Below the pieces are notes generated by a model. The model made no database searches. It saw nothing but the letters and a program-made list of their open reading frames with translations, and was not told the DNA's origin. A program made the translations under genes and the position numbers. Below, piece after piece: positions 3,605 through 64,000 of a DNA stretch of 64,000 nucleotides (positions within the stretch are counted from its first letter, which is position 1; each line of letters begins with the position of its first letter). The DNA comes from Verrucomicrobiaceae bacterium (GTDB taxonomy: Bacteria > Verrucomicrobiota > Verrucomicrobiia > Verrucomicrobiales > Verrucomicrobiaceae), in the NCBI GenBank assembly GCA_947458455.1, contig CANGYJ010000011.1, positions 62,001 to 126,000 of the forward strand. Reading direction: 5' to 3'.

Positions 3605-3739
3605 GTTGAATGGGATGCCGATAATGCAGAATCTTCCGGGCCAAGTCGTCGCCAAAAAATATGCCACGAGGGTATTCAAAGGCTGGCCATGAAGGTTTGA
3701 TGGTTGAACAGAAGGGCAGGCGGCGTATCACGGGGGCGC

Positions 3740-4516
3740 ATGTTTTCCCTTCAAAGTAAGAACGTCATCATCACCGGAGCTGGCTCCGGCATCGGTCAGG
3801 CCATCGCCGTGCTTTTCGCGAAGCAAGGTGCCCACGTCGAGGTGCTCGATCTCGATGAAAAGACCGCCCAGGTCACGGTGGATATGATCACCGCCGCCGG
3901 TGGCAGTGCCAAAGCCTCCGCTTGCGATGTGAGCGGCGTGGTCGGTGTGAAAACGCTCTTCGACGACATCGCCGCACGTCATGGCGGAAAGATCGACATC
4001 CTAGTGAACAACGCCGGTATCGCCCACATCGGCACCGCACTCACCACCGCTGAGGCGGACCTAGACCGCCTTTATCAGGTGAACATCAAAGGCGTGTATG
4101 CCTGTGCCAATGCTGCCCTCGCCCATATGACCGCCCGCCAGAGCGGCGTGATCCTCAATATGTGCTCCATCGCGGCTCAAATGGGCCTGCCGGACCGCTT
4201 TGCCTATTCGATGACAAAAGGGGCGGTGCTCATGATGACCTACTCCATCGCGAAGGACTTCCTGAAGCAGGGCATCCGCTGCAATTGCATCGCTCCGGCT
4301 CGTGTTCACACGCCGTTTGTGGATGGTTATCTGGCCAAAACTTACCCTGGCCGTGAAGCGGAGATGTTTCAAAAGCTCAGCGAGGCTCAGCCCATCGGCC
4401 GCATGGCGAATCCAGAGGAGATCGCCGCGCTGGCTCTCTACCTTTGCAGCGACGAGGCGGGCTTTGTCACGGGCAGTTCCTATCCCATCGATGGCGGCGC
4501 GGTGAATCTACGCTGA
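3740..4516 (+). CDS. Short-chain dehydrogenase/reductase (SDR family)
   Basis: This 258-residue classical SDR has the NAD(P)-binding TGxxxGxG motif TGAGSGIG at residues 12-19, the structural NNAG motif, catalytic Ser143 and the Y156-x3-K160 pair (YSMTK). The acidic residues after the second strand (LDLDE) suggest NAD rather than NADP preference. C-terminal features include the SDR segment YLCSDEAGFVTGSSYPIDGG. The ATG at 3740 starts right at the first strand; an upstream in-frame ATG adds 12 poorly supported residues. Substrate cannot be told; many such proteins oxidise sugar or alcohol hydroxyls. The stop nearly abuts the NfeD-like gene. Confidence 0.9.
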   Translation: MFSLQSKNVIITGAGSGIGQAIAVLFAKQGAHVEVLDLDEKTAQVTVDMITAAGGSAKASACDVSGVVGVKTLFDDIAARHGGKIDILVNNAGIAHIGTALTTAEADLDRLYQVNIKGVYACANAALAHMTARQSGVILNMCSIAAQMGLPDRFAYSMTKGAVLMMTYSIAKDFLKQGIRCNCIAPARVHTPFVDGYLAKTYPGREAEMFQKLSEAQPIGRMANPEEIAALALYLCSDEAGFVTGSSYPIDGGAVNLR

Positions 4517-46849: not shown

Positions 46850-48613
46850 TCAGCGTGCGAGCTTGAGGAAAGCCAGCTCTTCATTGAGGAGCAGGCCTTC
46901 CGGCACCTTTTCGGCGATCTGGAATGCTTCGGCAGGTTTGCCACTGGTGGCAAGCAGGCCGCTGAGGACGGCACGTTGACCAGCGGTCATGCCTCCAGCG
47001 GCGGGAATGCGGGCGACGTGGCGGGTGATGGCGTCCTTGTCTTTAAAACGAAAGGCGGCAAGAGCTTCGAGGAGGCTGACAGGGATGCGTCCTTCGGCGG
47101 AAGCTTCGGTCGAGAGAATATCCGGCTGGCGTTTGAGGGCGGAGATATCCACCGTCTCCATATCCTGGCCGAGGAGGAGGCGGAAGTAGGTGTGTTCATC
47201 TGCATAGGCGGGATTGGAGGGATTGAGCTCCTCCAGCTGGCGAGTGGCATCAAGGAGCGCTTTTGAGTTCGCTGTGAGGGTGGCAAGACCACGAATCTTC
47301 TGTAGGAAGGTGCTTTTACGATTGGGCACTGTTTTGACGAGGCCCTGGTAGGCCTCCAGGGATAGATCCGGCATTTCGAGACGAGAGGCAAGGGCGGCCG
47401 CGAGTTCGAGTTCCTCGTTTTCGCCGTTGTTGATGGCGGAGCTGACAGCGAAGGAGATGAGGTGGCGGGCTTCGAGGAGGTCAGGCTGGAGGTGGCTCTC
47501 AGCATCCGCCAGCCAGAGAGTGGCGAGGGTGTTGGAGACCGGCGGGCGGCGCTCTTTGAGCAATTTTTTGAGATCCTGCCAGCGTCCCTGGCCCACGAGA
47601 GCTTTCACGATGGCGGTGTAAAGGGGGCGGGAGCTAGCGGCTAGGTTCGGAGGGATAAGAGCGAGGAGGCGGGCATGCTCGCGGTGTGTGGAGAGCCAGG
47701 CGGCCATTTCGATGAGGGTGCCGTTTTTTTCTGTTTCGAAGCGGTTGATCTCGTGGAGGATCAGCCCCTCACGCTGCTCGGGAAAGAAGCGGATGAGAGC
47801 GCTGACGGCGTCGAGGCGGATGGCGAGGTTTGCATGTGGATGTGCCTCGATGATGGGGAGGAGGCGTTTTGCCTCCTCAGCGGTGAGGCGAACATCACGG
47901 AGGATGGCCTGTGAGGCGGCGATGCCGACGGGAGGTGGGAGCTGGCAGAGATCCCACAGCTCTCTCCAGGCCTGCTGACGCAGCTCGGGGAAGGCGTTGC
48001 GGCTGTTTTCAATGGCGAGCTGGAGACGGGCATCGGGGGAATCCTTATCGAGCAGGCGGGATTGGCGGGAAGTGGCCGCCGCCGCGGTGTTTTTGCCTTC
48101 GGCGGTCTGGAGCCTAGCGAGCATGGCAAGGCCTTCCGAGGTCTCCGAGGTACCTGGCGGCAGCGCGCCATACACACGCCGTGCTTCATCCACGCGGCCG
48201 AGATCGAGCAGGCAGAAACCATGAAGCAATTGCTGCTCTGCACTGAGCGTCTGCTTCGTGGCGAGCAAGCGGAGGTGGTAAGCTAGCTCGCGGCGGTCTC
48301 CTTTGACCAGCTTGAGGTAAGTGATGATGGCCCGCAGCACCTCGGGCTCCTCGGGGGAAAGGTTTCGTGCTTCGATGAGTTCGGCGATGGCATGGCCCAT
48401 GTTGTCCTCTTCCATGGAGGCGATGGCTTCACGGGCATGCGAGCGTGCCCAGGCATCCCGAATGGCATTCTTCGCCGGAGTCCAAGCGAGAACTCCTCCA
48501 ATGACGGCCACGACGGCGAAGATCAAGATGACGCTGAAATTTCCGAGCAGAGGAATTTTCGGCCGCTGAAACTCGACGGGCGTCTCGTTTTGGGGTTTGA
48601 ATTCGAAGGACAT
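46850..48613 (-). CDS. Membrane-anchored TPR-like repeat protein (last gene of the adhesin operon)
   Basis: 587 residues. A cytoplasmic N-terminal 25 residues, one membrane helix (FSVILIFAVVAVIGGVLAW), then a helical repeat domain resembling TPR or SEL1-type hairpins (AIAELIEARNLSPEEPEVLR near residue 80, and similar pairs of helices throughout). The repeats would lie in the periplasm. ATG 48613 was chosen over 48631 because FEFKPQ and the helix begin there. It is 24 bases after the giant exoprotein gene, so it is cotranscribed and probably handles assembly or stability of that product. No known family was recognised. Confidence 0.8.
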   Translation of the reverse strand: MSFEFKPQNETPVEFQRPKIPLLGNFSVILIFAVVAVIGGVLAWTPAKNAIRDAWARSHAREAIASMEEDNMGHAIAELIEARNLSPEEPEVLRAIITYLKLVKGDRRELAYHLRLLATKQTLSAEQQLLHGFCLLDLGRVDEARRVYGALPPGTSETSEGLAMLARLQTAEGKNTAAAATSRQSRLLDKDSPDARLQLAIENSRNAFPELRQQAWRELWDLCQLPPPVGIAASQAILRDVRLTAEEAKRLLPIIEAHPHANLAIRLDAVSALIRFFPEQREGLILHEINRFETEKNGTLIEMAAWLSTHREHARLLALIPPNLAASSRPLYTAIVKALVGQGRWQDLKKLLKERRPPVSNTLATLWLADAESHLQPDLLEARHLISFAVSSAINNGENEELELAAALASRLEMPDLSLEAYQGLVKTVPNRKSTFLQKIRGLATLTANSKALLDATRQLEELNPSNPAYADEHTYFRLLLGQDMETVDISALKRQPDILSTEASAEGRIPVSLLEALAAFRFKDKDAITRHVARIPAAGGMTAGQRAVLSGLLATSGKPAEAFQIAEKVPEGLLLNEELAFLKLAR

Positions 48614-48637
48614 GGCGGGAGAGAATGACAAAAGGGG

Positions 48638-51600
48638 TTACTCAGCACCGCCACGACGTTTTTTTTCGTCGTCACCTTCACCGCCACCGTAGCCGAGGAC
48701 TTCGACGGTGATGATGGAGGGGGGTTGAGAATCTTGTTTGGTCTCCTGATCCTGCTTGGAGGCCTGCTGGGCGGCGGGAGAGTTGCTCGTGGCCGCTCCG
48801 GCCGCTGCCGCGCTGGCGAGGCCGCCGAGTGCCGGGGTGGAAACGGCGGGCGCGGAGGGTGCTCCGGCACTCGCTCCGCCTACAGCGATGTTGCCAGCAT
48901 TCAGCACGACGGAGGCCGCGATGTTCAGGTTTCCCGTGGCGCGGATACCGGCGTCACCGGCATCCACCGCGCCGATGGGGGCGATGAGATCGACATTGCC
49001 CGGACGCACACCGGCGACGGTGGCGAGCACGCCGATGCCGCCACCCGTGGCGAGGCCGGCGAGGTCCGTGGCGACGGCGGCGCTCTGCGGATCAATGATG
49101 ACGCGGGTGGGCGGGGCGGACTGGATGGTCTTGGAGGAAGAGCCAGCGGCGATATTGCCCACGGTGGACCAGATGCTGATGTCACCACCGCGGAGGGTGA
49201 AGATACGGGAGATGCCGATGCTCACATCGGAATCGGCAAAGACGGAGATATTGCCGCCGGACTCCGTGATGATGCCGGGAGGGGCGAGCGGGGAGCCGAT
49301 GACGGTGGAGGCGAGCTGGAGACCGCCTGCGGGGGCGAGGATGGAGATATTGCCGCCGCTCTTGGTGCGGACGAAGCGTGCTTGGGTCTGGATGCTGCCG
49401 TCGAAGGCATAGCCAGGGATGGGGCGGTCTTCGGCCTTGATGAGGTCAATGCCGGGCGTCTCGATGGGGCGGGGGCCGACGAACATTCCTTCTTTCAGCT
49501 TATCATCAGCGCGGAAGAGCGTTTGGATGGCCTCGTAGCCAGCTCGGTAGGTGTTCACATCCGGGCTGTCGGGATTGTTGCGGTCTCGGCCTGCATCGCG
49601 GAGGGCGAGGAAGTAGAGAGCCATGGCGATCTGGTCACGCTGGGCAGGGGTGAGGGCGGGATCGTCGAGGTTGATGGAGTTGGAAAGGATGGTGCCTGTT
49701 GCATCAGGCGTTCCGATCTTGATCTCTGCGGGTGTCTCTCCTGGTGGAGTATAAGGTCTCCAGACAACGGGCGCGGATGGATCTGCGTCTTCAAACAACA
49801 TGCTCGCAGGAAGCCCACGCAGGCCATCACTCTGCAGCATGGTGGCGAGTTCGGCGAGGTAGCGGCGGCCAGCGAGTTCGTACTTGGGGGCAGGCGGCTT
49901 CACAGGAGTGGTCGAGCCAGGTAGAAAGCTGTAAGGCAGGACATCCTGGTCATACTGGATGGCATAAATGAAATCTGCGACCTTCGCGTTCGAACTGCCG
50001 AAGCCAGAGGAGACACCTCCCATGCCTGCCGCGAGGATGATGTCTGCACCGGAGAAGGGCAGGGCGGGATTGCGCCCGTTGCCGATGCTGTTGATACCGG
50101 TGCCAGTGCCGTCCGTATTGTCTGGGCCGGTGCCGAGGTTGAGGTCACGACCTGCGAGGACCTGGAGGGTGCCGGGACCGCTGATCTGGATATCGCCGTT
50201 TTTGGGGATTTGACTCGTCGCAGGGCTGTTGCCGGGCAAGGAGGCGGCGGTGCGCAGGGCGGAGTTGGCGTTGTAGGCCACGAGGTCACGACCGGAGGAG
50301 ACGGTGGAGAGATCGCTCTCACGGAGGTTTTGGATGTAAAAGGCGATGTCCGTGATGTCACGCCCGGCGAGGATGCTGGCTTTTTTGGGGGAGAAGAGCT
50401 GCAGGCCGGAGATGTCTCCGCCAAGGGCGCTGAGGCGCACAGGCTGGGTGTCCGCCGCGTGGAGGCCTTTGAAATGCAGGGACTGCTTCACCTGGAGAGA
50501 GGCGTAGATGCCGGTGGTGGAGCCGGACTCCGTCAGCAAACTGTCGAGGGCGGCCAGGAAGGGTGTATCACTGGTGACTTGGGCGGCATTGTTGTTTAAG
50601 TTTAACGGGACACTCGGATTGAAGTAAGTCTCGTAGTAGGCGAGGGGGGTGAGCGGACCGTAGATGGAGGCGGGATCGGCATCAGAGACATTGATGGAGG
50701 AGGAGGCCCAGGCGGTGGTCTGCTGGCCGGTGATGAGCGTTTCAGAAACACCGGTGGGGGCCAGGCCGAGGACAGAGCCTGCGGCGAGCAGTTCGAGTGT
50801 GCCGGTCGGAGAGGGGGAAAGGGTGACGTTCCCGATCATGGTGATATCCCCGGCAAAGGCAGTCGCTTGGAGGGTGCCAGGCATAAGCGTGCTGAGCGTG
50901 GTGCTGAAGGGGGAGACCGAAGTCTCCACCAAGCGAAGCCAGGGCTGGAAGTAGGCGGCGTTATTGAGTGTCGGCGTGAGCACGTTGAGCATCCAGATGC
51001 CCAGCATACTGTCTGTAGCCGGAGAGTTCGGGGTGGTGGCGGCCTGGCGGAAGGTGACATCGCCACCAAGGGAGGTCACACGCACGGCGGAATCGGTGCC
51101 GTAAGTACTGAAGTAGGTTTTGTACCAGTGCTTGTTGTTCAGGCCCTGCGGGAGCAGCATGGTATTGGCCACGGGGCCGATGAGAGCATCTCCTCCAGCG
51201 CGGATATCCAGGCTACCACGGCCGAGGAAGAAGGTGGTGGGCAGCCAGCTCTGCACCGGGTGGATGACAGGCACGTTGGAGAGATGCCCGAGCGATGGAG
51301 AGCGGGTGGCATTGGTGGTCACCTCGTTGCCGGCGATGAGGGTGGCGTCTCCGCGCTCGACGTAATAAACGCCGCCATCGATATTGTTCCCGGCAATGAT
51401 GGTGACATCCCCACCGCCCATTTCGAGGAGGGTAGCGGCGCTCGGCGTGCCACTGGCGGCGCGAGCATTGGTGGGCGCATGAGCACTGACGTTTTGCACA
51501 TCACGGCCTGCTTCGAGGGTCACATGGCCCCCGCCGAGGGTGGCCACGCCATCGAAGAAATTGCTGAAATCAACCCACCAACTGGTGCTTGTGGAGGAGT

Positions 51601-54600
51601 CAGTGATGGTTCGTCCTGACGCGGCCACACGGGTCACGCCATAGACGCCTGCCGGATTGACATAACCACGGCGCTGGAGCCAGTTGTTTGGAAGCTGGCG
51701 GGAGGAGTCCGCAATTAGATTGCCCCCGGAGTCACGGGTGTAATGGACGATATCGCGGTCGCTCGAGATGCGTACATTGCCACCAGCCAGGCTGTAGTGT
51801 GCATCATAGGGCTGTTGGAAGACTCCGACCTGGGAACTCTGTGCAGGGCTATTGGTGCTGGTTCGATTGACCAAAGGGCGCACAAAATCGTTCGTGGCAA
51901 AGACGGTGGTGATGTTGGGGACGGAGACACCGGCCGTGTAGATGGTGGCGAATTGGTTGAGGAGCTGGACATCCTGACCGGCGCTGATTTCGATGTCACC
52001 GGTGCCGGTGCGGATGACCTGGAAGCGGTTCGAGACGGTGGGAGAGCCTGTTGTCGCCGCGTTGTTGCTTGGGTTGATCGCCAGACGAGTAAGTGCCGAA
52101 AGGCCAGGGGAAGGATTCGATCCTGCGCTGGTGGGGATGGCTTGCGCAGCGTCTTTGCCGAGCAAGAGCGAGCCTGGGTTCGTCGTTTCACGGAAATTGG
52201 TGGCGCTCACGTCAGCACCCGCACTGAGGCGGTAGTTCCAGGATTGGGAATTGACTGGCAGCGTGGTATTCGGCGTGCTGAGCGTGCCCATCCACATGCG
52301 TTCGACGAGCGGTCCTGAGGTGGCGAGGGTGAAGCCGTCACTGAGGGTGTTGTAGAATTCAAGATTGCCACTGGCTCGCAGGGTGAGGGTGCCTGGGGCA
52401 TTCTTGGGACCGTAGCGGAAGGTGGCGAGGTTCCAATCTGCCAGCGCAGCGGAGGTGGGGGTGCCGAGGGAGATATTGCCGCCGCTATTGATGATCTCCA
52501 CGCCGGGTTGGAGGACAGAGACGGATTGGATGGAGGTGTTTCCACCGAGCAAGCGAGTGAACATGGCGTTGTGGTTTGCCATGAAGCTGGTGTTGTTGTT
52601 GTGGATCGTGGTCGTGTTGAGCGTCTCACCCGAGATGGCGGCGGCACCGGCGCGGAGGAGCGCATTGCTCTGATTGTAAGTGTAGGTGCGGAAGCCTTCG
52701 ATCTCGATGCTGGAGGCATCGATGAAGGTGCCAGCGATGGGATCAATATTCAGGTCGTCGAAGGTGGTCTTCTGCTGGGCGCGGAGGTGGACTTTGCCAC
52801 TGAACTGGCCGCGGAAGGCGCTGGAGGTCGTGAGGCTTTGATCACCTGCGATTTTGGAGGTGACGCCAAGGTCAAGTGTAGAACCAGAGGCGAGGGAAAT
52901 GCTTCCTGTGCCGGTGGATTCGATCCAAATGGCACCGCCCTTGCCTGCGCTGTCAAAGTTTTGACCTCGGACGGTTAGCGTGGAGCCGCTGGCAAGTGTG
53001 ACGCCGTCCCTGGCGATGAGGTCGATCCGGCCGCCCGTGCTGCCGGCGGCATTGATGGTGCCGTTGACGGTGATGCTGCCCTGATCCGTGCCAAGCAGGA
53101 AACGGCGGGCGTTCACAGTGTCATCGACGCTGACACTGCCGGAGCGCACACGAAATTCCCGGCTTTGATTGAAGGAGCCTGTGTTCAACCTGTCATTCAG
53201 TGAGGCGAAATCCGCTAGGCTGCCAAAGTCCATTTCAACCGAGCCTGAGCTGCCGCCAACTCCCGCCTGACCGAGCAGGGAGGGGTTGAAAGTCTGCGTT
53301 CCATCCGCTTGCGTTTGGAAGATGAGATTGCCCGCGGTTTTGATCTGGAGAGTGCCCGCGTCTCCGGCCTGTGCAGGGGCGGCGAGGTTCACGACGGCGC
53401 GGGAACCTAGCACCACGTTTCCGGCGACGGCGGTGAGGGAGATTTCTCCGGCATCCGTGTAGCGTGTGGCGTCAAAGAACTGCTGTGCGGCGCCGCCAGC
53501 GTCCACGCGGGAGCCGAGAATCGATCCATCGGTCATGGTTTGATCGGCGAGCTCGAGATCACCGTTGCGGGCACGGAGGGTGATGAGGCCGCTGGGGAGC
53601 AAAAGCTGCGTGCTGGTGGTGAGGGATGCTCCTTCGAGGGTGAGTTTGGCTCCGAGGCCGAGGTTGGTGGCCGTGGCGGTGGTCTGCGGACGTTGCAGCA
53701 CGAGGTCACCGCCTGCCTGGATGCCGTGCGAGGCATTTCCCAGCGCAGCGATGAAGGGCGTGACTACCTGCACATTCGCCTGAGCACGGAATGAGCCACT
53801 GTCCTGTGTACGCATGCCCAACGCAGAGACGAGGCTGACGCTGCCGAACTGGTTCACTGCCAGGGTGCCTTTCCCAAGGGTGATGGTATCCGCTGTAAAG
53901 CTGAGGCTGCCCGTGGTCGGAGTAATCGCGCCGGTGCCAGTTCCATTCGCACTGTTATCGAGGAGTAGCGTTTTCGCGTTCACTGTCACCGAAGCGGCTC
54001 CCTGATTGAAGCCGCGAATTTCACCTGCATGGAGTTCCAGGGCGCCGGTGGAGGCAAATGAGCCGGTACCGTAAAAATCGATCGAGGAGTAGCTGAGCAG
54101 TGAAAGTGAGCTGGAGGCCTGCAAAGCCGTCAAGAGAGTTCCACCCAGCACGAGGCCAGCATTTGGCTGCAAGGCACCTGGATTGGCGAGCTGGAGGCTG
54201 ATGCGTCCACTGCTGAGCTGATTGGCCGTGGCGGTGATTTGGGTGGTGATGTCGAGCGTGGTGGCATTCGTCGAGTCGAGTGTGACGGTGCGGCCGGAGA
54301 TCGCCGCATTGGCACCGATGGTGAGCGAAGGTAGTGCGGAGGTGGTGACGCCACTGCGGGAGGTTTGTGCACCGGGGACTCCGCTCACACGGACCAGTGC
54401 TCCATTGCCGCTAAGCACAAAGGTGTCAGCGGAGATTTGGGGGCCGGTTTGCGGATCGATCTGTTGCAAAACGGAGCCGCTGGTGATGGTGAGATTTTGT
54501 GTGGCAGCCAGCAGGATGTCAGAGCCGGTGAGGGGCGAGCCAGGATTGTCGAGCGTCAGATTGGTGGTGCGTACGTTCACGGCCGGGCTGCTGGTGTTGC

Positions 54601-57600: not shown

Positions 57601-60337
57601 CGTGTGGCACGGTGAGCGGGCTTGGAGCATCAGCGCGGTCATTGATGACGAGACCGGCGGTGTTCAGCACAGCTCTAGTTCCGATCCGCACATGGCCGCG
57701 GGTGGCGTTCAACGGCGGGACGGGCATGTTAGGCCTCAAGGAGGCAATCAGCTCCGTCGTAAATGGGGAGATTTCCCAGGATTTGAGGTCGATGTTGCCG
57801 GACGGGGCAAGGATGGATCCTTCGATGGTCACATTGGCACCGTGCAGCTTCACCGAGCCGGCAGCGGTGGTTCGCAAGGTGGTTCCAAATGGCACGGTGA
57901 TATCACCATCCACATTGACCACGCTCAACGAGCTGAAGCCCTGCGTGGAAGTCAGCGCTGGGGTGAGGATGACGGAGTCTTTGCGGTCTTGGCGTAGTGC
58001 CAGCGGAATGCCGGCTCCATCAAGCTCAAAAGGCGCTGCCGCAGTCAGGCCCGCCGCACCGTCCCGGATGGTGACCGCGGGTGGAGTCGGGGAGAAAAAC
58101 GGCAGGACCAAGGGGGAGCGCACTGCCTGCTGAGCTTGCCAGGAGAGAGAGAGGGAGCTGGTCTGTGGGGCTAGACCGAGCTGCTGGGGGCCGATGACCG
58201 TGCCGCCACTCAGCGTGCCATCCAGCGCCATGGAAGGTGCCATGATGGAAATACTACCTCCATTCCCGCCCATGACGTGAGCGGCCTCTGAGCGCGTGTT
58301 ACCGCTAAAAACACCGGAATTGGTCGTGGTGGTTCCCCAACGCGGATCGGTGCTACTGTTGCTGCCCGTGTAGATACCGTCATATACGACCGAAGGATCG
58401 GCTCGGGCGATGTCCACTGGCTTGCCATTGGCTCCCAGGAGTGTCGTGCTGACTTCGGCCGCAGCAAACTCTTGGTAGCCGCCGCTCACATTGACGCCCG
58501 CGCCCTCCTGCATCACCACGGACTCGCCCGCTTGAATGGAGACTTGGCCACCCGATACGGTGAGCTGACCCACGTTACGCTCGATCACGCCGAGGTAGCC
58601 GCTCAAATTTGCCAGCGGCGTGCCATACCAAGTGGAACCATCGGCGCGGGTGCCACTTTCCCGCATGTCCACGCGCACCGTCTGTCCCCGGAGATTGCTG
58701 TTGCGCTGCAAAGGCGTATCTGCCAGCTCCGCCGCACGGAGTCCCACATCAAGAATGTATTGCTCCACGCTCGCGGCGATACCCGCCGAGCCAGCCACGT
58801 TCACTACCGCGCCTCGGTCCAGATACACCTGGCCGCCTGCCAGCACGAAATCCTGAAGGGTCTCGATAGACGGCACCACATCCCAGATACCCGCGCTCAA
58901 GGCCACTTTGCCACCGGGTGCATAGACGACGGAACCGGCACCGAGATGCACCGCGAGTCCGCGCATGTTCACCTGCGATTTGAGGGCCAGCTCCGTGCCG
59001 ACGACCTTGAGGCTGCTGTTATACTCCGGCAGTACCTGGATCACGGAATCTGCGGCCGTTCGCACGACGCCCGTTGAAACGCCCGTGCCGCTTTGATAGA
59101 CGAACGGTCCTCCAGACCGCGGCTCCGCCGGATTGTAGAACGTGTTGGAAACCGCGTTGTAATCGGCCAGCAGATCCACCCGGCCGTTCAGCGCGGCCGA
59201 GGTGGTGCTGTGAATGAATCCGTTTTGGTTTACATTTTTGCCCGCGACGACCACGCTGCCTCGCTCGGAGGCGATGAAACCGTTGTTCGTGGCCGTGCCG
59301 CCATAGGCACCCACCTTGCCGACATAGACATCCAGGCCGCGCAGGCTCGGATCATCGCTGCTGTGGGCATCGTAACCGACCTCCATGCCTGCGGCCAGGA
59401 TCGTCTGGCCGTCTGGCGTGGAGATGCTGCCGTTGTTGGTGACGTTTGGGCCGATGAGTGCCACGCGACCGCCCACATTGGCGGAACTGGTAGGCGCGGT
59501 GATCTGCGCTCCGCGCTGCACCGTGACGTTGCCGATCTTGCCGTACGCCGTCGCAGTGACGGGAACGTCCGGTGAGGAAAAGAGGAACTCGGAGTCTGGG
59601 TTGTTGAGCAGGCCGTTGGTGACGAGCGTCTGGTTGATGGGCAAAGCGGAGGCAGTGAGGGAGCCGGTGTTCACCTCGCTGGCACCGCCGAAGATGATGC
59701 CGTTTTGATTGATCAAATACACCTGGCCCTGAGCTTCGATACTGCCGAGGATCTGCGAGGGATTGCCACTGGGATCGGTGATGCGGTTGAAGGCGATCCA
59801 GCTTGCGGCATTGGAGCCGCCCGCACTTTGATCGAATTTAACGGTGGTCTGGCGACCGACGTTGAAGGTGTTCCACTCCAGCATGGCCTGCTGCTGCGTC
59901 TGCTGGATGTTCACGATGGCACGGGCGTTTTCCATCGACTGCGTGGGATTGTTTGCACCACTGGAGCTGTTGAAATCCAGGCCGCCGACTCCGAGGCCAT
60001 CGGGCACATCGGGTAGCGTCATGCCGGGGAAATTGGGATTCGCTCCCGCATTGTTCATCGTGGCGGCGGCGGCACGGGCGGCATCCTGCATGTTCTGCAC
60101 CGCATCGAGGGCCAAGGTGTTGCGCGTGAGCATGTCCTGCGCGGCGGCTCGTGCATGGGAGGCAGCGGCGGCGGCATTCACGCTGTTGGCATTGGCGGCG
60201 CTGGCATCCGCAGGTACACCCGCAGCACCTCCTGCGCCGCCAAGCGTGTTTCGAGTGAGCATATCCGCCATCACAGCCTGCGGTGGCAGGATGATGAGGA
60301 GGATCATGAAGTGGGCGATGATGCGTTTGGCGATCAT
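48638..60337 (-). CDS. Giant filamentous-haemagglutinin family exoprotein (TpsA-like)
   Basis: 3899 residues. Signal peptide MIAKRIIAHFMILLIILPPQ-AVMA. An Ala/Asn-rich spacer with two copies of DMLTRNTL leads to the TPS secretion domain at about 105-330 (QQAMLEWNTFNVGR, IAFNRI, then LINQNGIIFGGASEVNTGSL, corresponding to the NPNGI motif of TpsA proteins). The rest is a very long right-handed beta-helix of Gly/Ser/Thr/Asn repeats. The C-terminus is charged (DQETKQDSQPPSIITVEVLG, then an acidic/basic tail). Such proteins are adhesins or surface fibres. The TpsB partner that would carry it across the outer membrane is not in the window. Leader before the ATG has an 8-base C tract. Confidence 0.9.
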   Translation of the reverse strand: MIAKRIIAHFMILLIILPPQAVMADMLTRNTLGGAGGAAGVPADASAANANSVNAAAAASHARAAAQDMLTRNTLALDAVQNMQDAARAAAATMNNAGANPNFPGMTLPDVPDGLGVGGLDFNSSSGANNPTQSMENARAIVNIQQTQQQAMLEWNTFNVGRQTTVKFDQSAGGSNAASWIAFNRITDPSGNPSQILGSIEAQGQVYLINQNGIIFGGASEVNTGSLTASALPINQTLVTNGLLNNPDSEFLFSSPDVPVTATAYGKIGNVTVQRGAQITAPTSSANVGGRVALIGPNVTNNGSISTPDGQTILAAGMEVGYDAHSSDDPSLRGLDVYVGKVGAYGGTATNNGFIASERGSVVVAGKNVNQNGFIHSTTSAALNGRVDLLADYNAVSNTFYNPAEPRSGGPFVYQSGTGVSTGVVRTAADSVIQVLPEYNSSLKVVGTELALKSQVNMRGLAVHLGAGSVVYAPGGKVALSAGIWDVVPSIETLQDFVLAGGQVYLDRGAVVNVAGSAGIAASVEQYILDVGLRAAELADTPLQRNSNLRGQTVRVDMRESGTRADGSTWYGTPLANLSGYLGVIERNVGQLTVSGGQVSIQAGESVVMQEGAGVNVSGGYQEFAAAEVSTTLLGANGKPVDIARADPSVVYDGIYTGSNSSTDPRWGTTTTNSGVFSGNTRSEAAHVMGGNGGSISIMAPSMALDGTLSGGTVIGPQQLGLAPQTSSLSLSWQAQQAVRSPLVLPFFSPTPPAVTIRDGAAGLTAAAPFELDGAGIPLALRQDRKDSVILTPALTSTQGFSSLSVVNVDGDITVPFGTTLRTTAAGSVKLHGANVTIEGSILAPSGNIDLKSWEISPFTTELIASLRPNMPVPPLNATRGHVRIGTRAVLNTAGLVINDRADAPSPLTVPHAINGSGSTTDGGVIRLQGHTVEILAGSLLDVSGGLIADRTMHYDDAGSLTILAGNDPLITSLGGGSLLLAGTLQGFSGGHGGSMTLQAPTIQVGGAAVHPGTLLLAPEFFSTGGFSKFVMHGIGTDISPGGDASQFAPAVWITGGAVINPVVTTLQASVALDSGLSQIEIARVLNPEGYRDTSSLRFEAPGVQNFINNTVLKVRGDVVMDAGTRIVTDALGSVTLHAQTVAALGEISAPAGTITIHGSARFNENADPVAGRATVHLGSGSRLLATGRTLYQFDAFGRRVGTVHDGGTIQVEGNIIAEAGALLDVSGTSAVLDLLPEEVGQQIANLSSSGQLIRPTISVPTLVASHGGAVSLKGGDFLHTQATLLGRAGAADARGGSLKVESGRFVPPGAEIDDKEISLLVAASMSAFANPIFLPGQSLVGQTLGTLTGRGYFGVDAFQTGGFEGLSLKGNVQFNGPVSLQSAGYLQIATGGVLSASNLVKLTSSYVSLGTSLGKPTRDEELINPFVVDEPGTGERPSYFSPLFGTGRLEVEADLIDTGFLSLQGIGNASITARQELRGSGYLDIAGHLTLTAGQIYPVTASTFTLTAYDYVDGGSARTGSITILPSSATPALPLSAGGRLNLFASSITQGGTLRAPFGSIRLGWDGTGTAPRGLVTNTNVPVTQQVTLAAASNTSVSAIDPRTGTGVSIPYGLIKDGTNWIDPTGFDITSTGAPQSSIRTTAREVITEAGSTIDIRGGGELYGYRWVQGNGGTADILASEGRFAVMPSYGSSIAPYAPFASAGLFANNLGGDAGYVNDSLNIGDRIFLKGSGLLAEGIYTLLPARYALLPGALLITPVDGTPVDSFVKPGGAVQTSGFLFNSLNPAVTNRVYSSFEIAPQRVVKVRAEYADYQASTFIPAAQQRLELPITRTPVDGGYTLLGAVQAMQLAGNLTATGSLGGRGGRVDISSPLDIVIAAPGTPAQPGKLVLNAALLSGWNAESLLIGGERSGNTSSPAVNVRTTNLTLDNPGSPLTGSDILLAATQNLTITSGSVLQQIDPQTGPQISADTFVLSGNGALVRVSGVPGAQTSRSGVTTSALPSLTIGANAAISGRTVTLDSTNATTLDITTQITATANQLSSGRISLQLANPGALQPNAGLVLGGTLLTALQASSSLSLLSYSSIDFYGTGSFASTGALELHAGEIRGFNQGAASVTVNAKTLLLDNSANGTGTGAITPTTGSLSFTADTITLGKGTLAVNQFGSVSLVSALGMRTQDSGSFRAQANVQVVTPFIAALGNASHGIQAGGDLVLQRPQTTATATNLGLGAKLTLEGASLTTSTQLLLPSGLITLRARNGDLELADQTMTDGSILGSRVDAGGAAQQFFDATRYTDAGEISLTAVAGNVVLGSRAVVNLAAPAQAGDAGTLQIKTAGNLIFQTQADGTQTFNPSLLGQAGVGGSSGSVEMDFGSLADFASLNDRLNTGSFNQSREFRVRSGSVSVDDTVNARRFLLGTDQGSITVNGTINAAGSTGGRIDLIARDGVTLASGSTLTVRGQNFDSAGKGGAIWIESTGTGSISLASGSTLDLGVTSKIAGDQSLTTSSAFRGQFSGKVHLRAQQKTTFDDLNIDPIAGTFIDASSIEIEGFRTYTYNQSNALLRAGAAAISGETLNTTTIHNNNTSFMANHNAMFTRLLGGNTSIQSVSVLQPGVEIINSGGNISLGTPTSAALADWNLATFRYGPKNAPGTLTLRASGNLEFYNTLSDGFTLATSGPLVERMWMGTLSTPNTTLPVNSQSWNYRLSAGADVSATNFRETTNPGSLLLGKDAAQAIPTSAGSNPSPGLSALTRLAINPSNNAATTGSPTVSNRFQVIRTGTGDIEISAGQDVQLLNQFATIYTAGVSVPNITTVFATNDFVRPLVNRTSTNSPAQSSQVGVFQQPYDAHYSLAGGNVRISSDRDIVHYTRDSGGNLIADSSRQLPNNWLQRRGYVNPAGVYGVTRVAASGRTITDSSTSTSWWVDFSNFFDGVATLGGGHVTLEAGRDVQNVSAHAPTNARAASGTPSAATLLEMGGGDVTIIAGNNIDGGVYYVERGDATLIAGNEVTTNATRSPSLGHLSNVPVIHPVQSWLPTTFFLGRGSLDIRAGGDALIGPVANTMLLPQGLNNKHWYKTYFSTYGTDSAVRVTSLGGDVTFRQAATTPNSPATDSMLGIWMLNVLTPTLNNAAYFQPWLRLVETSVSPFSTTLSTLMPGTLQATAFAGDITMIGNVTLSPSPTGTLELLAAGSVLGLAPTGVSETLITGQQTTAWASSSINVSDADPASIYGPLTPLAYYETYFNPSVPLNLNNNAAQVTSDTPFLAALDSLLTESGSTTGIYASLQVKQSLHFKGLHAADTQPVRLSALGGDISGLQLFSPKKASILAGRDITDIAFYIQNLRESDLSTVSSGRDLVAYNANSALRTAASLPGNSPATSQIPKNGDIQISGPGTLQVLAGRDLNLGTGPDNTDGTGTGINSIGNGRNPALPFSGADIILAAGMGGVSSGFGSSNAKVADFIYAIQYDQDVLPYSFLPGSTTPVKPPAPKYELAGRRYLAELATMLQSDGLRGLPASMLFEDADPSAPVVWRPYTPPGETPAEIKIGTPDATGTILSNSINLDDPALTPAQRDQIAMALYFLALRDAGRDRNNPDSPDVNTYRAGYEAIQTLFRADDKLKEGMFVGPRPIETPGIDLIKAEDRPIPGYAFDGSIQTQARFVRTKSGGNISILAPAGGLQLASTVIGSPLAPPGIITESGGNISVFADSDVSIGISRIFTLRGGDISIWSTVGNIAAGSSSKTIQSAPPTRVIIDPQSAAVATDLAGLATGGGIGVLATVAGVRPGNVDLIAPIGAVDAGDAGIRATGNLNIAASVVLNAGNIAVGGASAGAPSAPAVSTPALGGLASAAAAGAATSNSPAAQQASKQDQETKQDSQPPSIITVEVLGYGGGEGDDEKKRRGGAE

Positions 60338-60355
60338 GAAAGGGGGGGGAAAGGG

Positions 60356-61219
60356 TTAGGGGCGGGCTAGCTTTGACAGCGCGACCCCATCCAAAGCGAC
60401 AGGGTGATTGCGCAACATTTCCGTCACATAAGCCTGCATGTTGGCACGCGCCTTTTCAGCACGGAGCCGGAGCGTGAGAGGCTCACGCACCTGCTCCAGG
60501 AAGGGGGTATGTGCTTCGCGAACGTCGAGTACCTTGAGGATATGCCAGCCATCACCCAGCTTTAGCGGCTCGGAAATGACGTTGAGGGCTAGTTTGGGCA
60601 GGCGGGCGAGGATTTCGGGTTGAATCTGGGCTTCGGTGAGCCAACCGATGTCTCCATCCCGTTTGGCGCTGGATTGATGCTCGCTCATTTCACGAGCGAT
60701 TTGAGCAAACGACGCGGGATCAGCCTTCAAACGAGCCTTCACGGCCTCCAGGCGGTCTTCACTGACAAAAATCTGCGCGAGGTGAAATGACTTTGACTGC
60801 GTGAGTGAGGGCTTGGCGGCCTCGTAAGCAGCTTTCAGCTCGTTTTCGCTCGGAAATGACGCGGGCGGCTGGCTGAGCTTTTTGAGGTAACTATCCGCAA
60901 TGGCAGCCTCACGAGTGTTTTGAATCAGTTTTTGTGTTCCGGGCTCTTTATCCCACTTTTTCGCTAGAGCTTCTTTCAGCACGAGACGCTGCAGAAGCAT
61001 GGCTTCGGCTAATTTCCGCAACGAGGCGGCATCGAGCGTGCCGGGGTTCTCGATCTCGGAGGCGTGCAGTTCGATCTCGCCGATGCGGGCGATGACGTCG
61101 CCACAAAATGATGAATGAGGAAGGACGAATGAAGCAACAATGACGAAACCCCAATGGCGAAGCCCTTGGGCATTCGGCATTCGGGCTTCATTCGTCATTC
61201 TGGATTCGTCATTCGTCAT
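60356..61219 (-). CDS. Secreted parvulin-type peptidyl-prolyl isomerase (SurA/PrsA-like)
   Basis: 287 residues. The N-terminal 40 residues derive from a palindromic repeat and end in a hydrophobic segment GFVIVASFVLPHSSF that can serve as a signal peptide. Residues 50-150 are helical (chaperone part). The parvulin domain is at about 160-250, with FHLAQIFVS, FAQIAREMSEHQSSAKRDGD, IGWLTEAQIQPEIL and GWHILKVLD. It isomerises X-Pro bonds during periplasmic folding. The ATG at 61219 overlaps the preceding stop (ATGA), so coupling supports that start; M8 and M14 are alternatives. The giant exoprotein follows after 18 bases, pointing to a folding role for it. Confidence 0.85.
   Translation of the reverse strand: MTNDESRMTNEARMPNAQGLRHWGFVIVASFVLPHSSFCGDVIARIGEIELHASEIENPGTLDAASLRKLAEAMLLQRLVLKEALAKKWDKEPGTQKLIQNTREAAIADSYLKKLSQPPASFPSENELKAAYEAAKPSLTQSKSFHLAQIFVSEDRLEAVKARLKADPASFAQIAREMSEHQSSAKRDGDIGWLTEAQIQPEILARLPKLALNVISEPLKLGDGWHILKVLDVREAHTPFLEQVREPLTLRLRAEKARANMQAYVTEMLRNHPVALDGVALSKLARP
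61107..61219. repeat. GAATGACGAAT palindromic repeat that forms the PPIase start
   Basis: 113 bases built from GAATGACGAAT and its reverse complement ATTCGTCATTC. Perfect arms include GACGAATGAAGC (61124-61135) with GCTTCATTCGTC (61185-61196), and CAATGACGAA with TTCGTCATTG. Related runs are at 2591-2623 and 18361-18397. Read on the minus strand, the outer half codes for a charged MTNDESRMTNEAR and the inner half for a hydrophobic stretch, that is, a signal-peptide-like N-terminus. Confidence 0.8.
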
Positions 61220-61935
61220 TGTTTCTTGGGTGCTTCGACACGGGCGGCTTCCTCTTTGGAGACCGGTTTGCTCGCGGTGACGGCGGTTGCGTCGGGTGTC
61301 TTCGGGGCATCGGCGGGTTGAATCTTGCCGTCCTGGAGCTTGTCACCGAAGTCCTGGAGGTAGTTCTCCAGCTTCACACGCATGCTTTTGGTGAAGGGTT
61401 CACGAGCGGCGATGGCGGTGCCGAGGCCGAAGCCTTCATACTTGGCGAGGATCTCATTTCCGATGTTGTAGAGATCGAGGTTCTTGCGGTTGGCCTCGGC
61501 TACCTTTCGCTCGGCCAGGATGGCACGGGCGGCATGCTCGGCACGCTGCGCATCAATCTTCTTGGCGGCATCGACGATTTGGGCGTGGCCTTTTTTCCAC
61601 GCGGCGAGGGATTCCTGAAGGCGGACGATCTCGGCGGCCTGCTGGGCGGCCTTGTCTTGGAGGTCAGCGATGGCTTTGGAGTCCGTCTCCTTCTGGAGAT
61701 TGCTCTCTTTAACGAGTTTTTTGAGGTTCGAATCGAGGCTGGAGGCTTTTTCCTCCAGCGTGACTTTCTCGGCAGCGAGAGCGGCACGATCCGCCTCCGT
61801 CTTTTGCTGCTGGAGCATGACGGTGCGGAGTTGTTCACGCATGCGTTTGAGCGCTGCCATGGCCGGATCGACTTCTTCGACGGCAAAGACCGGGCTGACG
61901 GCAAGAATGAGGAACAGGGCGAGGGATTTTTTCAT
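61216..61935 (-). CDS. Secreted coiled-coil protein
   Basis: 239 residues. Signal peptide MKKSLALFLILAVSPVFA, then an uninterrupted coiled coil from about residue 25 to 160 (MREQLRTVMLQQQKTEADRA, with heptads of Ala/Leu/Glu/Lys). A short conserved-looking block LYNIGNEILAKYEGFGLGTA and a Lys/Ala/Pro-rich disordered tail follow. No known family. It is 3 bases after the porin and overlaps the PPIase start by 4 bases, so it is part of the operon. In the periplasm it could act as a spacer or chaperone between the membranes. Confidence 0.8.
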   Translation of the reverse strand: MKKSLALFLILAVSPVFAVEEVDPAMAALKRMREQLRTVMLQQQKTEADRAALAAEKVTLEEKASSLDSNLKKLVKESNLQKETDSKAIADLQDKAAQQAAEIVRLQESLAAWKKGHAQIVDAAKKIDAQRAEHAARAILAERKVAEANRKNLDLYNIGNEILAKYEGFGLGTAIAAREPFTKSMRVKLENYLQDFGDKLQDGKIQPADAPKTPDATAVTASKPVSKEEAARVEAPKKQ

Positions 61936-61938
61936 GAT

Positions 61939-63939
61939 TTAGAAGCGGGAAAGGAACTCAATGAGGAAGACATCCGTCTGGAGCGGCGGGCCGGCGATCT
62001 GGTTGGCGCTCATGTAGGCAAGGCGTGTCCAGGTGCGCTTGGAGAGGGCGTAGAGTCCCTGGATGGTGTAGCCTTCCATGTTGCTGCCGCCGTTGCCGAA
62101 GCGGGATTCGGTGAAACCATCGACGACGGCATCAGACTCCACATGGCGGTAGCCGATGTTGAGGGCCCAGTCACCACGTTTGTCGAAGAGGGCCACGGGC
62201 TTGCCGAAGTTCATGCCGATGTACCAAGCGAGATCACCGCCATCCCAGGCACCGGCTCCACCTGCACGATTGTTCACCACGGGATCAAGGCGGGCGAAGT
62301 CATTCATCGCGGCACGGTCGAGACCGAAGTTCTTCACGACGTCGGCCATCAACGAGACCTGCATCGGCTCCCAATGGTTAAAGTCTACGCGGCCGTTCCA
62401 GGCGAGCTGGCGGAACTTGGTGGCGAGGCCGAAGTATTGGAACTGGTTGATGGTGCCGCCGAGGTTACCACCAGGTGCCGCGCCCGGTGTGGCTGTGATG
62501 TTGCGGATGGGGCGGTAAGTGTTGCCCTTCTGTGCGAAGAGTGGACGGCTGTCATCGGTGTCTCCCGCGTCATTGGCGGAGGCGGGCACGAAGGGGCTGG
62601 AGAAGCGCCCTTCGATGCTTTCCCAGTGGTAGTAGGCGATGCCGGATTTCACTTCGATGTCATCCGTGATCTTGAACTGCACGCCAAACTGAGCGGCGAG
62701 GAGATACTTGTCATTGCTGGTGGCTTTTGAGGTGCTGTTGTCCGGTGAGTTGAGTGCGGTGTTGAAGACCGGGAAGGCTCCTGCGGTGAAGAAGGAACTC
62801 AGATCCTGATTCCATGAGTTGGTGACGGAGAAAGCGATGCCATCAAGGTTCACGTCCTCGTCCCACATGATCTGGCTATTGTTGAAGAACGGATTCTGGA
62901 AACGTCCGAGCTCGACCATGAGATGAGAGTGAGTCGTGAGATCGGCCTCATATTTCATGAAGGCGCGGTCGAGCCACATCTCATACTTCGAGAAATTGCC
63001 GCCCTGCGTGTTGCCATTGGTGGAGCCGAGCGTCTGGTTCGTGGAGACAGGCGAGTTGTTCCCGCCGCTGGCAAGGCGAATGCCTGCGGTGAAGCCGTCC
63101 TCCAGATCGACGTCAAAGCCCAGGCGCAGCCGCAGGCGGGTGCGGTCACGGTTGCGATCCACATTGAGCTGCGGTGGCAAGGTGCCAGCAGCGTTGGTGA
63201 GATCAAACGGAGCGCCGGTGTTGATGGCGTTGAAGTTCGGGAACGCGCCGGTGAGGTTGTCATTGCCGGCGGGATACATGAGCATCTCCTGGCGCATGCG
63301 CATATCGCCAAACATCTTGATGCGCTGTGCCCATTCAAGACGTCGGTCGGTGGTGGGGGAGGACCAGCCCTCGGTGCGGGCCTGGGAGAGCACTTCACTG
63401 CGAATCTGCGTGCGGATTTCTTCTTTGACGGCCTCCGGGATGTAGGTGACGCGGACTTCTTCCTGATCGGGGGCGAGTGGTGGTAAGGCCGATTGCGCGG
63501 CCACGGCGGCTTGCGTTTCGGCGAGGGTCTGTGCTTGGGCTTGAGCCATCTGAGCTTCTTGCTCGGCGCTCTTCACGAGGTCAGCGGCATCGGCTTTGGT
63601 CAAGGCACCGCGTTCGACGAGCTTGTTGATGAGGTTGACGACGACGCTTTCCGTCGCGGTGGCCTGTGGGCGGGATTGGATGGCACCGGGCTCGGGCAGC
63701 AGGGAGATCGGTGGTGGGAGATCGGCACCGGTGCTGGCGGGAGGCGGAGCTGGAGCCGGAGTCGGAACAGGAGGCGGAGCAGCCGGGGCACCTTCCTTCA
63801 TCTGAGGGGCGGCCGTTTTCGCGGGCGTGACCTCGGCGAGGAGAGGGAAGGGGAGATCGGGTTCCTTCAATTCAGGCACCTGGGCCACCACGGGCAGTGC
63901 GAGGAGGAAGAGAAGGGAGGAGCGACGGAGGATGAGCAT
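61939..63939 (-). CDS. Porin_5-like outer-membrane porin
   Basis: 666 residues. Signal peptide MLILRRSSLLFLLALPVVAQ, a Pro/Ala-rich linker, then an SLH-like motif (VVVNLINKLVERGALTKADAADLV) that may bind peptidoglycan. From about residue 190 a long beta-barrel follows, with strands such as LEWAQRIKMFGDMRMRQEML and RDRTRLRLRLGFDVDLEDGF. It ends in LIEFLSRF with a terminal Phe, a usual outer-membrane barrel signal. The closest family by pattern is putative porin (PF16930). It is the first complete gene of the operon and 24 bases downstream of a gene cut by the window edge. Confidence 0.85.
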   Translation of the reverse strand: MLILRRSSLLFLLALPVVAQVPELKEPDLPFPLLAEVTPAKTAAPQMKEGAPAAPPPVPTPAPAPPPASTGADLPPPISLLPEPGAIQSRPQATATESVVVNLINKLVERGALTKADAADLVKSAEQEAQMAQAQAQTLAETQAAVAAQSALPPLAPDQEEVRVTYIPEAVKEEIRTQIRSEVLSQARTEGWSSPTTDRRLEWAQRIKMFGDMRMRQEMLMYPAGNDNLTGAFPNFNAINTGAPFDLTNAAGTLPPQLNVDRNRDRTRLRLRLGFDVDLEDGFTAGIRLASGGNNSPVSTNQTLGSTNGNTQGGNFSKYEMWLDRAFMKYEADLTTHSHLMVELGRFQNPFFNNSQIMWDEDVNLDGIAFSVTNSWNQDLSSFFTAGAFPVFNTALNSPDNSTSKATSNDKYLLAAQFGVQFKITDDIEVKSGIAYYHWESIEGRFSSPFVPASANDAGDTDDSRPLFAQKGNTYRPIRNITATPGAAPGGNLGGTINQFQYFGLATKFRQLAWNGRVDFNHWEPMQVSLMADVVKNFGLDRAAMNDFARLDPVVNNRAGGAGAWDGGDLAWYIGMNFGKPVALFDKRGDWALNIGYRHVESDAVVDGFTESRFGNGGSNMEGYTIQGLYALSKRTWTRLAYMSANQIAGPPLQTDVFLIEFLSRF

Positions 63940-63963
63940 GAGAAAAAGGGGGGCGGGCAGTGT

Positions 63964-64000
63964 TTAGCGGCCGTTGAAGCGCATGATGACGGGCATGGGG
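63964..64000 (-). CDS. C-terminal end of an upstream gene (cut by window edge)
   Basis: The reverse strand shows the last codons ...PMPVIMRFNGR followed by TAA at 63966-63964, 24 bases before the porin. A TonB-like energy-transducer C-terminus could end like this, but 11 residues are not enough to name the family. The spacing suggests it belongs to the same operon as the porin and exoprotein. Confidence 0.5.
   Translation of the reverse strand, partial: PMPVIMRFNGR

What the first reader, a model, noticed from the sequence alone, without database searches (positions are those of the whole stretch)
46850..64000. 17-kb operon for a giant FHA-like exoprotein without a visible TpsB
Six minus-strand genes have gaps of 24, 3, -4, 18 and 24 bases. 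They are the end of an unknown gene, a porin with an SLH-like region, a periplasmic coiled-coil protein, a parvulin isomerase, the 3899-residue FHA-family protein, and a membrane-anchored repeat protein. The FHA protein has a recognisable TPS secretion domain, which in classical systems needs a POTRA-barrel TpsB. Here the only barrel is a Porin_5-like protein. Either TpsB is outside the window or a non-classical export and anchoring module is used, with dedicated periplasmic folding factors.
Basis: partly seen in the sequence, partly recalled or inferred. Interest (0 to 1): 0.7.

Follow-up and report, generated by a model that had tools for sequence, protein, structure and literature searches.

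The report
Phosphate-starvation secretion operon with Ton motor
The giant surface protein does have its own export pore, encoded just past the end of the window as the first gene of the same operon, together with genes for a dedicated proton-driven Ton motor, a porin and likely phosphate-starvation control sites; the set resembles the little-understood Pdt system of Pseudomonas and recurs in other bacteria.

Summary
The window genes are as described, but "no visible TpsB" is an effect of the window edge. In the same genome the operon continues upstream as TonB-ExbD-ExbB-TpsB (POTRA + ShlB barrel); TpsB is its first gene, about 3 kb past the window, with gaps of 6-29 bases. The finding's own refuter is met. 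The real unit, TpsB-ExbB-ExbD-TonB-Porin_5-coiled coil-(PPIase)-FHA/DUF3739, has nearly the published gene order of the P. aeruginosa PdtA/PdtB locus, whose Ton genes are called uncharacterised (PMC7035377 passages). Downstream of related TpsBs with room: ExbB 71/71, ExbD 66/67, TonB 63/63, porin 57/57, coiled coil 55/55. Other TpsBs lack the set: 0 of 20 in the phylum, 0 of 8 on plasmids. A de novo motif upstream of tpsB also marks phoU/pst regions (20 sites in 238 kb versus 1 in 300 kb): probably a Pho box. A diverged PstS-like protein often sits beside it. Best reading: a PhoB-regulated, Pdt-type two-partner secretion system with its own Ton complex. What TonB drives is unknown and is the interesting open question.

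The parts
46850..48631 (-). last gene: repeat protein with an N-terminal hydrophobic anchor, 593 aa from TTG (587 aa from the inner ATG at 48613); accessory
   Evidence: (TPR below cut-off)
48638..60337 (-). TpsA: 3899-aa FHA-type exoprotein, TPS domain 127-337, DUF3739 3717-3827, no cysteine, NQNGI motif at 210
60356..61219 (-). parvulin-type peptidyl-prolyl isomerase, 287 aa
60411..60430 (.). Pho-box-like site, 74 bases upstream of the FHA start and inside the end of the isomerase gene; best score of the 64-kb window (14.45); 12 of 49 related FHA starts have such a site
61216..61935 (-). periplasmic coiled-coil protein, 239 aa, conserved C-terminal region with EPF; position matches PA0697
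61939..63939 (-). Porin_5 protein, 666 aa; helical N-terminus, predicted 16 long strands, barrel like OmpM1
63964..64000 (-). C-terminal end of the TonB-like protein (222 aa, whole gene 63964-64632 = L002:1964-2632). Further parts lie beyond the window, in window frame: ExbD 64646-65047, ExbB 65054-66883, TpsB 66913-68580 (first gene), Pho-box-like sites 68620-68639 and 68673-68692; neighbouring unit PstS-like 69798-70985, PEP-CTERM protein 71024-71911, Pho-box-like site 72078-72097

Best explanation
This is a Pdt-type two-partner secretion operon switched on by phosphate starvation. Shown by sequence: TpsA (FHA/DUF3739) and TpsB (POTRA + barrel) lie in one gene row with ExbB, ExbD, TonB, a porin, a coiled-coil protein and a parvulin; the set is conserved as a block; Pho-box-like sites precede tpsB and, at about a quarter of related FHA starts, tpsA. 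Inferred from known families: Sec exports TpsA; the parvulin and perhaps the coiled-coil protein keep it unfolded in the periplasm; TpsB threads it through the outer membrane, where it folds into a long beta-helical surface fibre. Inferred and unproven: the dedicated ExbB-ExbD-TonB complex uses proton-motive force to act on an outer-membrane partner of this same operon (TpsB or the porin), either to power or gate export of the giant chain, or to drive uptake of a phosphorus source caught by the fibre. My estimates: export through the operon's own TpsB 0.95; PhoB control 0.88; Ton complex serves this system rather than only ordinary TonB receptors 0.8; TonB helps export 0.4 versus drives uptake or signalling 0.4.
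For: TpsB upstream in the same gene row. All 6 DUF3739 genomes among 194 of the phylum (own included) carry TpsB, ExbB, ExbD, TonB, porin, coiled coil and FHA in this order (ExbB of G125 and some coiled-coil frames were hidden by the overlap filter and are listed). 80 best of 328 relatives: ExbB 71/71, ExbD 66/67, TonB 63/63, porin 57/57, coiled coil 55/55, PPIase 33/49, FHA 37/45 of those with room. Plasmids: 10 of 11 TpsBs with at least 35% identity have ExbB-ExbD-TonB-porin-coiled coil (in H11 after the FHA gene, in H7 TonB scored only 29 bits). Controls lack the set: 0 of 8, 0 of 20. De novo motif, 16.7 bits against 9.9-10.7 in shuffles; in phoU/pst regions 20 versus 1 site at score 16 or more; at starts of tpsB 52/75 (training), FHA 12/49, PEP-CTERM gene 10/29, but 6/418 at the starts of seven other genes. 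PstS fold of a neighbour. G197 and G202 have no TonB-receptor plug or barrel hit yet keep the operon's Ton genes. P. aeruginosa Pdt: nearly the same order, and pho boxes (passages).
Against: No expression or secretion data. P. aeruginosa proteins themselves were not aligned here; the match rests on published gene order and annotations. One Pdt-type plasmid locus (Methylomagnum, H10) has no ExbB/ExbD/TonB within 20 kb. This genome's TonB has a lipobox-like N-terminus instead of the usual anchor, which would weaken classical coupling. TIGR tonB_Cterm is below its cut-off. TpsB transporters are held to work without external energy (start of the abstract of PMC9355242, seen in listings). No TonB box was identified. 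The genome has 6 plug-domain hits that this TonB could serve. 16 of 49 relatives showed no PPIase and 8 of 45 no FHA start downstream. 6 of 20 phoU/pst stretches have no site of 15 or more.
Confidence: 0.77

Rival explanations
1. Capture-and-uptake system like HxuCBA: the TpsA fibre catches a phosphorus-bearing ligand and the Ton complex drives its uptake through the porin; secretion itself needs no energy.
For: Pho-box-like control and PstS-like neighbours; HxuA/HxuB/HxuC precedent (PMC5422565 passages).
Against: The porin is a Porin_5 barrel of general-porin fold with no plug-domain family hit, unlike a TonB-dependent receptor; ligand unknown.
Confidence: 0.35
2. Ordinary adhesin TPS; the Ton genes and porin merely share the phosphate-regulated transcript and serve other receptors.
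For: Own genome has 6 plug-domain hits; co-regulation can keep genes together.
Against: Block conserved across Verrucomicrobiota and alpha-, beta- and gammaproteobacteria, absent at 28 control TpsBs, kept in two genomes without any receptor hit (completeness of these two unknown).
Confidence: 0.2
3. One reading: the porin replaces TpsB in a non-classical export and anchoring module.
For: None found; it came from the window edge.
Against: TpsB present in the operon and in all six DUF3739 genomes of the phylum sample.
Confidence: 0.01
4. Contact-dependent inhibition (CdiB/CdiA-like) system.
For: TpsB's best solved relative by sequence is a CdiB (6wim, E 1.4e-11).
Against: The C-terminus is DUF3739, found in related FHA proteins, with no toxin family hit; the next gene is a long protein with a hydrophobic anchor, not a small immunity gene.
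Confidence: 0.02

Closest known systems
PdtA/PdtB locus of Pseudomonas aeruginosa (pdtA; phdA-pdtB-exbB2-exbD2-tonB4-PA0696 to PA0701)
   Same: Order TpsB-ExbB-ExbD-TonB-putative porin-PA0697-...-PpiC isomerase; pho boxes at the pdtA and phdA promoters; phosphate-starvation induction (passages of PMC2729926, PMC4971064, PMC7035377, PMC9769906).
   Different: Here TpsA follows in the same gene row; no YbjN-type gene (PA0698) in the row; no phdA-, Hxc-, ECF-sigma- or FecR-type family among the 18 ORFs of L002 scanned, four of which are operon genes. ExbB carries DUF2341 + a laminin-G-like domain (whether PA0693 does was not tested).
Classical TPS (FhaB/FhaC, type Vb)
   Same: TPS domain, POTRA-barrel TpsB, tight linkage.
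   Different: Dedicated Ton complex, porin and coiled-coil protein; NQNGI instead of NPNGI (the latter recalled); a shorter stretch before POTRA1 (median 33 residues after the signal core in 78 relatives, 64 in 21 controls), leaving little room for the H1 plug helix (recalled from FhaC).
HxuCBA haem acquisition
   Same: TPS combined with Ton-driven transport.
   Different: Its three-gene operon has a TonB-dependent transporter as third gene (PMC5422565 passages); here the motor genes are encoded but no receptor gene.
OmpM1 outer-membrane attachment porin (Veillonella parvula, 8bys)
   Same: Best fold match of the Porin_5 barrel, Z 21.2, rmsd 4.0 over 303 residues.
   Different: No SLH domain found by Pfam; function in attachment not shown; many general porins also match (Z 15-19).

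Membership tests
Two-partner secretion (type Vb) | TpsA with N-terminal TPS domain | tested here: met
   PF05860 E 8.9e-20, TIGR01901 E 1e-19
Two-partner secretion (type Vb) | Cognate TpsB with POTRA and ShlB-type barrel | tested here: met
   PF08479 and PF03865 above cut-off, same gene row
Two-partner secretion (type Vb) | NPNG(I) motif in TPS domain (recalled) | tested here: inconclusive
   Conserved variant NQNGI at residue 210
Two-partner secretion (type Vb) | Secretion of TpsA depends on TpsB | not testable with these tools
   needs mutants
Pdt-type TPS locus | TpsB-ExbB-ExbD-TonB-porin-coiled coil-isomerase order | tested here: met
   against the published order
Pdt-type TPS locus | Pho box at tps promoters | tested here: met
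   motif level only; binding not shown
Pdt-type TPS locus | Sequence homology of each protein to PA0690-PA0699 | not tested
   no P. aeruginosa record was reached; proteobacterial relatives with this order were
PUMA3 (VreAIR) regulon | Linked ECF sigma and FecR-like regulator | tested here: not met
   18 ORFs of L002 scanned, no sigma or FecR family; rest of the genome not searched
Ton system | ExbB and ExbD with conserved channel residues | tested here: met
   PF01618 E 8.8e-27, PF02472 E 1.6e-23; membrane segments strongly conserved
Ton system | TonB with N-terminal membrane anchor and TonB C-terminal domain | tested here: inconclusive
   C-terminal domain E 0.0085, below cut-off; N-terminus lipobox-like in this genome, usual anchor in most relatives
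Porin_5 | PF16930 above cut-off | tested here: met
   571 bits
SLH-domain porin | SLH domain | tested here: not met
   no SLH family at E 0.05
CDI (CdiBA) | C-terminal toxin domain and immunity gene | tested here: not met
   Pfam and NCBIfam list only the TPS domain and DUF3739

The most novel reading that the evidence does not exclude
A proton-motive-force-driven two-partner secretion system: a TpsB without room for the usual plug helix, whose export step (or the working stroke of its giant surface fibre) is powered or gated by a dedicated ExbB-ExbD-TonB complex, breaking the rule that TPS needs no energy at the outer membrane.
Probability: 0.3. Interest if true: 0.85.

Novelty: new variant of a known kind. 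Interest (0 to 1): 0.52.

Why it matters
TPS is described as working without external energy, yet one branch of TPS loci carries its own proton-driven Ton genes as a near-fixed part, from Verrucomicrobiota to several proteobacterial groups, with signs of phosphate-starvation control. A P. aeruginosa paper calls these Ton genes uncharacterised (PMC7035377 passages). Cross-phylum conservation turns an odd regulon of one pathogen into a likely general envelope machine and makes the question 'what does TonB push or pull in a TPS?' directly testable in harmless bacteria.

Tried and rejected
Missing TpsB: rejected. Porin as exporter: rejected. SLH domain: no Pfam hit. 'The genome has no TonB receptors, so the Ton complex must serve this operon': rejected for this genome (6 plug hits); it holds for 2 of 16 genomes scanned (G197, G202), both also without barrel hits (4 genomes searched), completeness unknown. 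TonB box in TpsB or porin: the conserved porin segment NVTINLIN lies within the general Porin_5 profile (match starts at residue 98), so no claim is made. Another regulator instead of PhoB: the motif TGTGACGATTTCGTCACA is palindrome-like, but it also reads as an 11-base direct repeat and occurs at phoU/pst genes. Against it: 6 of the 20 phoU/pst stretches have no site of 15 or more (L157, L158, L162, L165, L166, L168), and binding is untested. Of the 20 sites of 16 or more two lie in L176, beside the G013 operon, and one of these is its tpsB promoter; 18 are elsewhere. In one search the 10 of 29 for the PEP-CTERM gene include L043, whose site is the divergent tpsB promoter, and two L045 genes that share one site. 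The first Pho-box tests used shuffles; real-sequence controls: 21 of 75 tpsB regions against 13 of 645 other ORF upstreams. The PstS-like family has no Pfam hit of sense and no NCBIfam hit for the three members scanned; profile and fold searches were needed. Porin and TpsB single-sequence PDB searches gave 0 and 2 hits; the porin profile gave nothing below E 0.05. Literature: the term DUF3739 gave 0 papers; searches gave, in the listings seen and in the passages of five papers, no test of the Ton genes of a TPS locus; Faure 2014 is not held. This is no claim about all print. The comparison with controls for H1 is loose: controls spread from 1 to 96 residues (quartiles 41 and 75; relatives 28 and 36).

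Rows dropped: loci without enough sequence downstream were left out of each count (80 loci in all); upstream counts used the 60 with over 4 kb (PstS-like 23, PEP-CTERM 22). In one search, 4 of 78 regions were dropped as near-duplicates. In one search, 110 of 119 sequences were kept. Of 50 plasmid records with a match, 30 were listed and 19 fetched: the 11 of Pdt type and 8 of the 19 others listed. The 20 phylum controls are loci picked from the rows; several come from one genome (four each from G126 and G078) and some are cut short; one (L230) has ExbB/ExbD genes 2-4 kb away and one (L235) a weak isomerase hit, none TonB, Porin_5 or the coiled coil. Alignments A2-A4 used 25, 42 and 30 sequences, a choice among those found.
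Full report
What was checked. The window ends inside an operon. It is G000:C11:62001-126000; L002 holds C11:124001-143000 and agrees with the window over the shared 2000 bases, so window position = L002 position + 62000.

What lies beyond the edge. Reading upstream: TonB-like protein (63964-64632), ExbD (64646-65047), ExbB with DUF2341 and a laminin-G-like domain (65054-66883) and TpsB (66913-68580), with gaps of 24 (to the porin), 13, 6 and 29 bases. TpsB has POTRA_2 (E 1.5e-14) and ShlB (E 9.8e-16); it is the only ShlB hit in the genome.

How conserved it is. DUF3739 occurs in 6 of 194 genomes of the phylum. In all six the order TpsB-ExbB-ExbD-TonB-Porin_5-coiled coil-FHA is found, with an isomerase of this type in three (own, G178, G125). 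The ExbB frame of G125 and the coiled-coil frames of G140, G085 and G178 were hidden by the overlap filter and are listed. One scan of named genomes gave 328 relatives of TpsB, the best 80 kept. Counting only loci with enough DNA downstream: ExbB 71/71, ExbD 66/67, TonB 63/63, Porin_5 57/57, coiled coil 55/55, isomerase 33/49, FHA start 37/45. Three of the 80 come from records named Rhodospirillales, Reyranella and Zavarzinia, i.e. Alphaproteobacteria; each of these genomes has DUF3739 hits.

Controls. On plasmids, TpsB hits fall into two groups: 11 records at 35-43% identity and, of the other 19 listed, all at 26.4% or less. Of the 11, 10 have ExbB-ExbD-TonB-porin-coiled coil by TpsB (in H11 they follow the FHA gene, in H7 TonB scores only 29 bits); the exception is Methylomagnum, which has a porin, PhoU, a substrate-binding protein and PhoX nearby but no Ton genes within 20 kb. 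Of 8 controls none has them. In the phylum, 20 other TpsB loci were taken from the ShlB search: none has TonB, Porin_5 or the coiled coil; one (L230) has ExbB/ExbD genes 2-4 kb away and one (L235) a weak isomerase hit.

Phosphate control. A Gibbs sampler on 74 regions upstream of tpsB found TGTGACGATTTCGTCACA (16.7 bits; six reruns 12.8-16.4, sixteen runs on four shuffles 9.9-10.7), two GTSAC half-sites 11 bases apart as in a Pho box (the E. coli box is recalled; the P. aeruginosa box is two 7-base direct repeats, PMC4971064 passages). Scanned with the same matrix, 20 phoU/pst stretches of the relatives held 20 sites of score 16 or more in 238 kb (two of them beside the G013 operon, one being its tpsB promoter), and 20 arbitrary stretches of genomes from the same set 1 in 300 kb. 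Sites lie at the start of phoU (L169, L174; C3:434777 in the own genome, score 18.2), and before a PstS-like (score just under 16) and an ABC-ATPase gene, both named by motif only. Six of the 20 stretches have none of 15 or more. Around the operon, sites mark the starts of tpsB (52/75, the training set), FHA (12/49) and the PEP-CTERM gene (10/29, one of them a tpsB site), but 6 of 418 starts of seven other genes. In the own genome the sites are at 68620 and 68673 before tpsB, 72078 before the PEP-CTERM gene and 60411, 74 bases before FHA, the best score in the 64-kb window. P. aeruginosa likewise has separate pho-box promoters for pdtA and for phdA-pdtB.

Neighbours. A protein without Pfam family, found upstream of TpsB in 23 of 60 loci with room (a PEP-CTERM protein in 22), is a diverged PstS: its profile hits PstS 1 at 4e-9 and the AlphaFold model (pLDDT 86.7) matches PstS structures at 8e-13. 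The Porin_5 model (pLDDT 70.8; N-terminus low) matches OmpM1 best, Z 21.2, with general porins at 15-19.

What it is. The published P. aeruginosa order is pdtB-exbB2-exbD2-tonB4-PA0696 (putative outer-membrane porin)-PA0697-PA0698 (YbjN)-PA0699 (PpiC); [quoted passage not shown] PdtA, PA0696 and PA0698 are among the proteins most enriched under phosphate limitation (PMC9769906 passages). PMC2729926 (passages) already noted the TPS-ExbBD-PA0696 linkage in several Proteobacteria. So the kind is known in part; what I add is the verrucomicrobial single-row form, the block across phyla with controls, the Pho-box-like sites there, and the recurrent PstS-like partner.

How it works. Shown: genes, order, conservation, motif. 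Inferred: export of TpsA through TpsB, folding into a Cys-free surface fibre (0 cysteines in 3899 residues), PhoB control. Open: the work of the Ton complex. For its belonging to this system: the block conservation, and two genomes (G197 with L081, G202 with L075) with no receptor plug or barrel hit that keep the Ton genes. Also suggestive: Pdt-type TpsBs have a short stretch before POTRA1 (median 33 residues from the signal core, 78 sequences; 21 controls 64, with wide spread), leaving little room for the plug helix H1. Against: this genome's TonB has a lipobox-like N-terminus, no TonB box is evident, and the genome has six plug-domain hits.

Verdict. Ordinary as a 'TPS without TpsB' (it has one); of real interest as a phosphate-linked TPS with a dedicated Ton motor. 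On checking, the estimate for PhoB control went from 0.90 to 0.88 and the overall confidence from 0.78 to 0.77, because two of the phoU/pst-region sites and some promoter counts are not independent of the training set.

Noticed in passing
63964-64632 in window frame (L002:1964-2632): The TonB-like protein has a short hydrophobic N-terminus ending in LISC, lipobox-like; L033, L038 and L096 also show such a pattern there and L050 a similar ASSC, while the near relatives L020 and L021 have a normal anchor. Unexplained.
   Followed up: partly
L002:4913-6580 and related TpsBs: Pdt-type TpsBs appear to leave little room for the N-terminal H1 plug helix.
   Followed up: partly
L002:3054-4883: ExbB carries a DUF2341 + laminin-G-like domain ahead of its membrane part; the 75-sequence alignment keeps conserved positions there. 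What it binds is unknown.
   Followed up: no
window 48638-60337, first 120 residues of FHA: A conserved Ala-rich segment precedes the TPS domain, unlike classical TpsA, where the TPS domain starts the mature protein (recalled).
   Followed up: no
L176 (G013:C11:53947-54501) and L110: A phoU gene lies beside the operon in G013; phoU and phoX lie near the Methylomagnum locus.
   Followed up: no
L109 and L111: Type II secretion genes lie next to the locus on Cupriavidus and Aquabacterium plasmids, as Hxc does in P. aeruginosa.
   Followed up: no
L034, L050, L054, L096, L111: Two ExbD genes in tandem in some loci.
   Followed up: no
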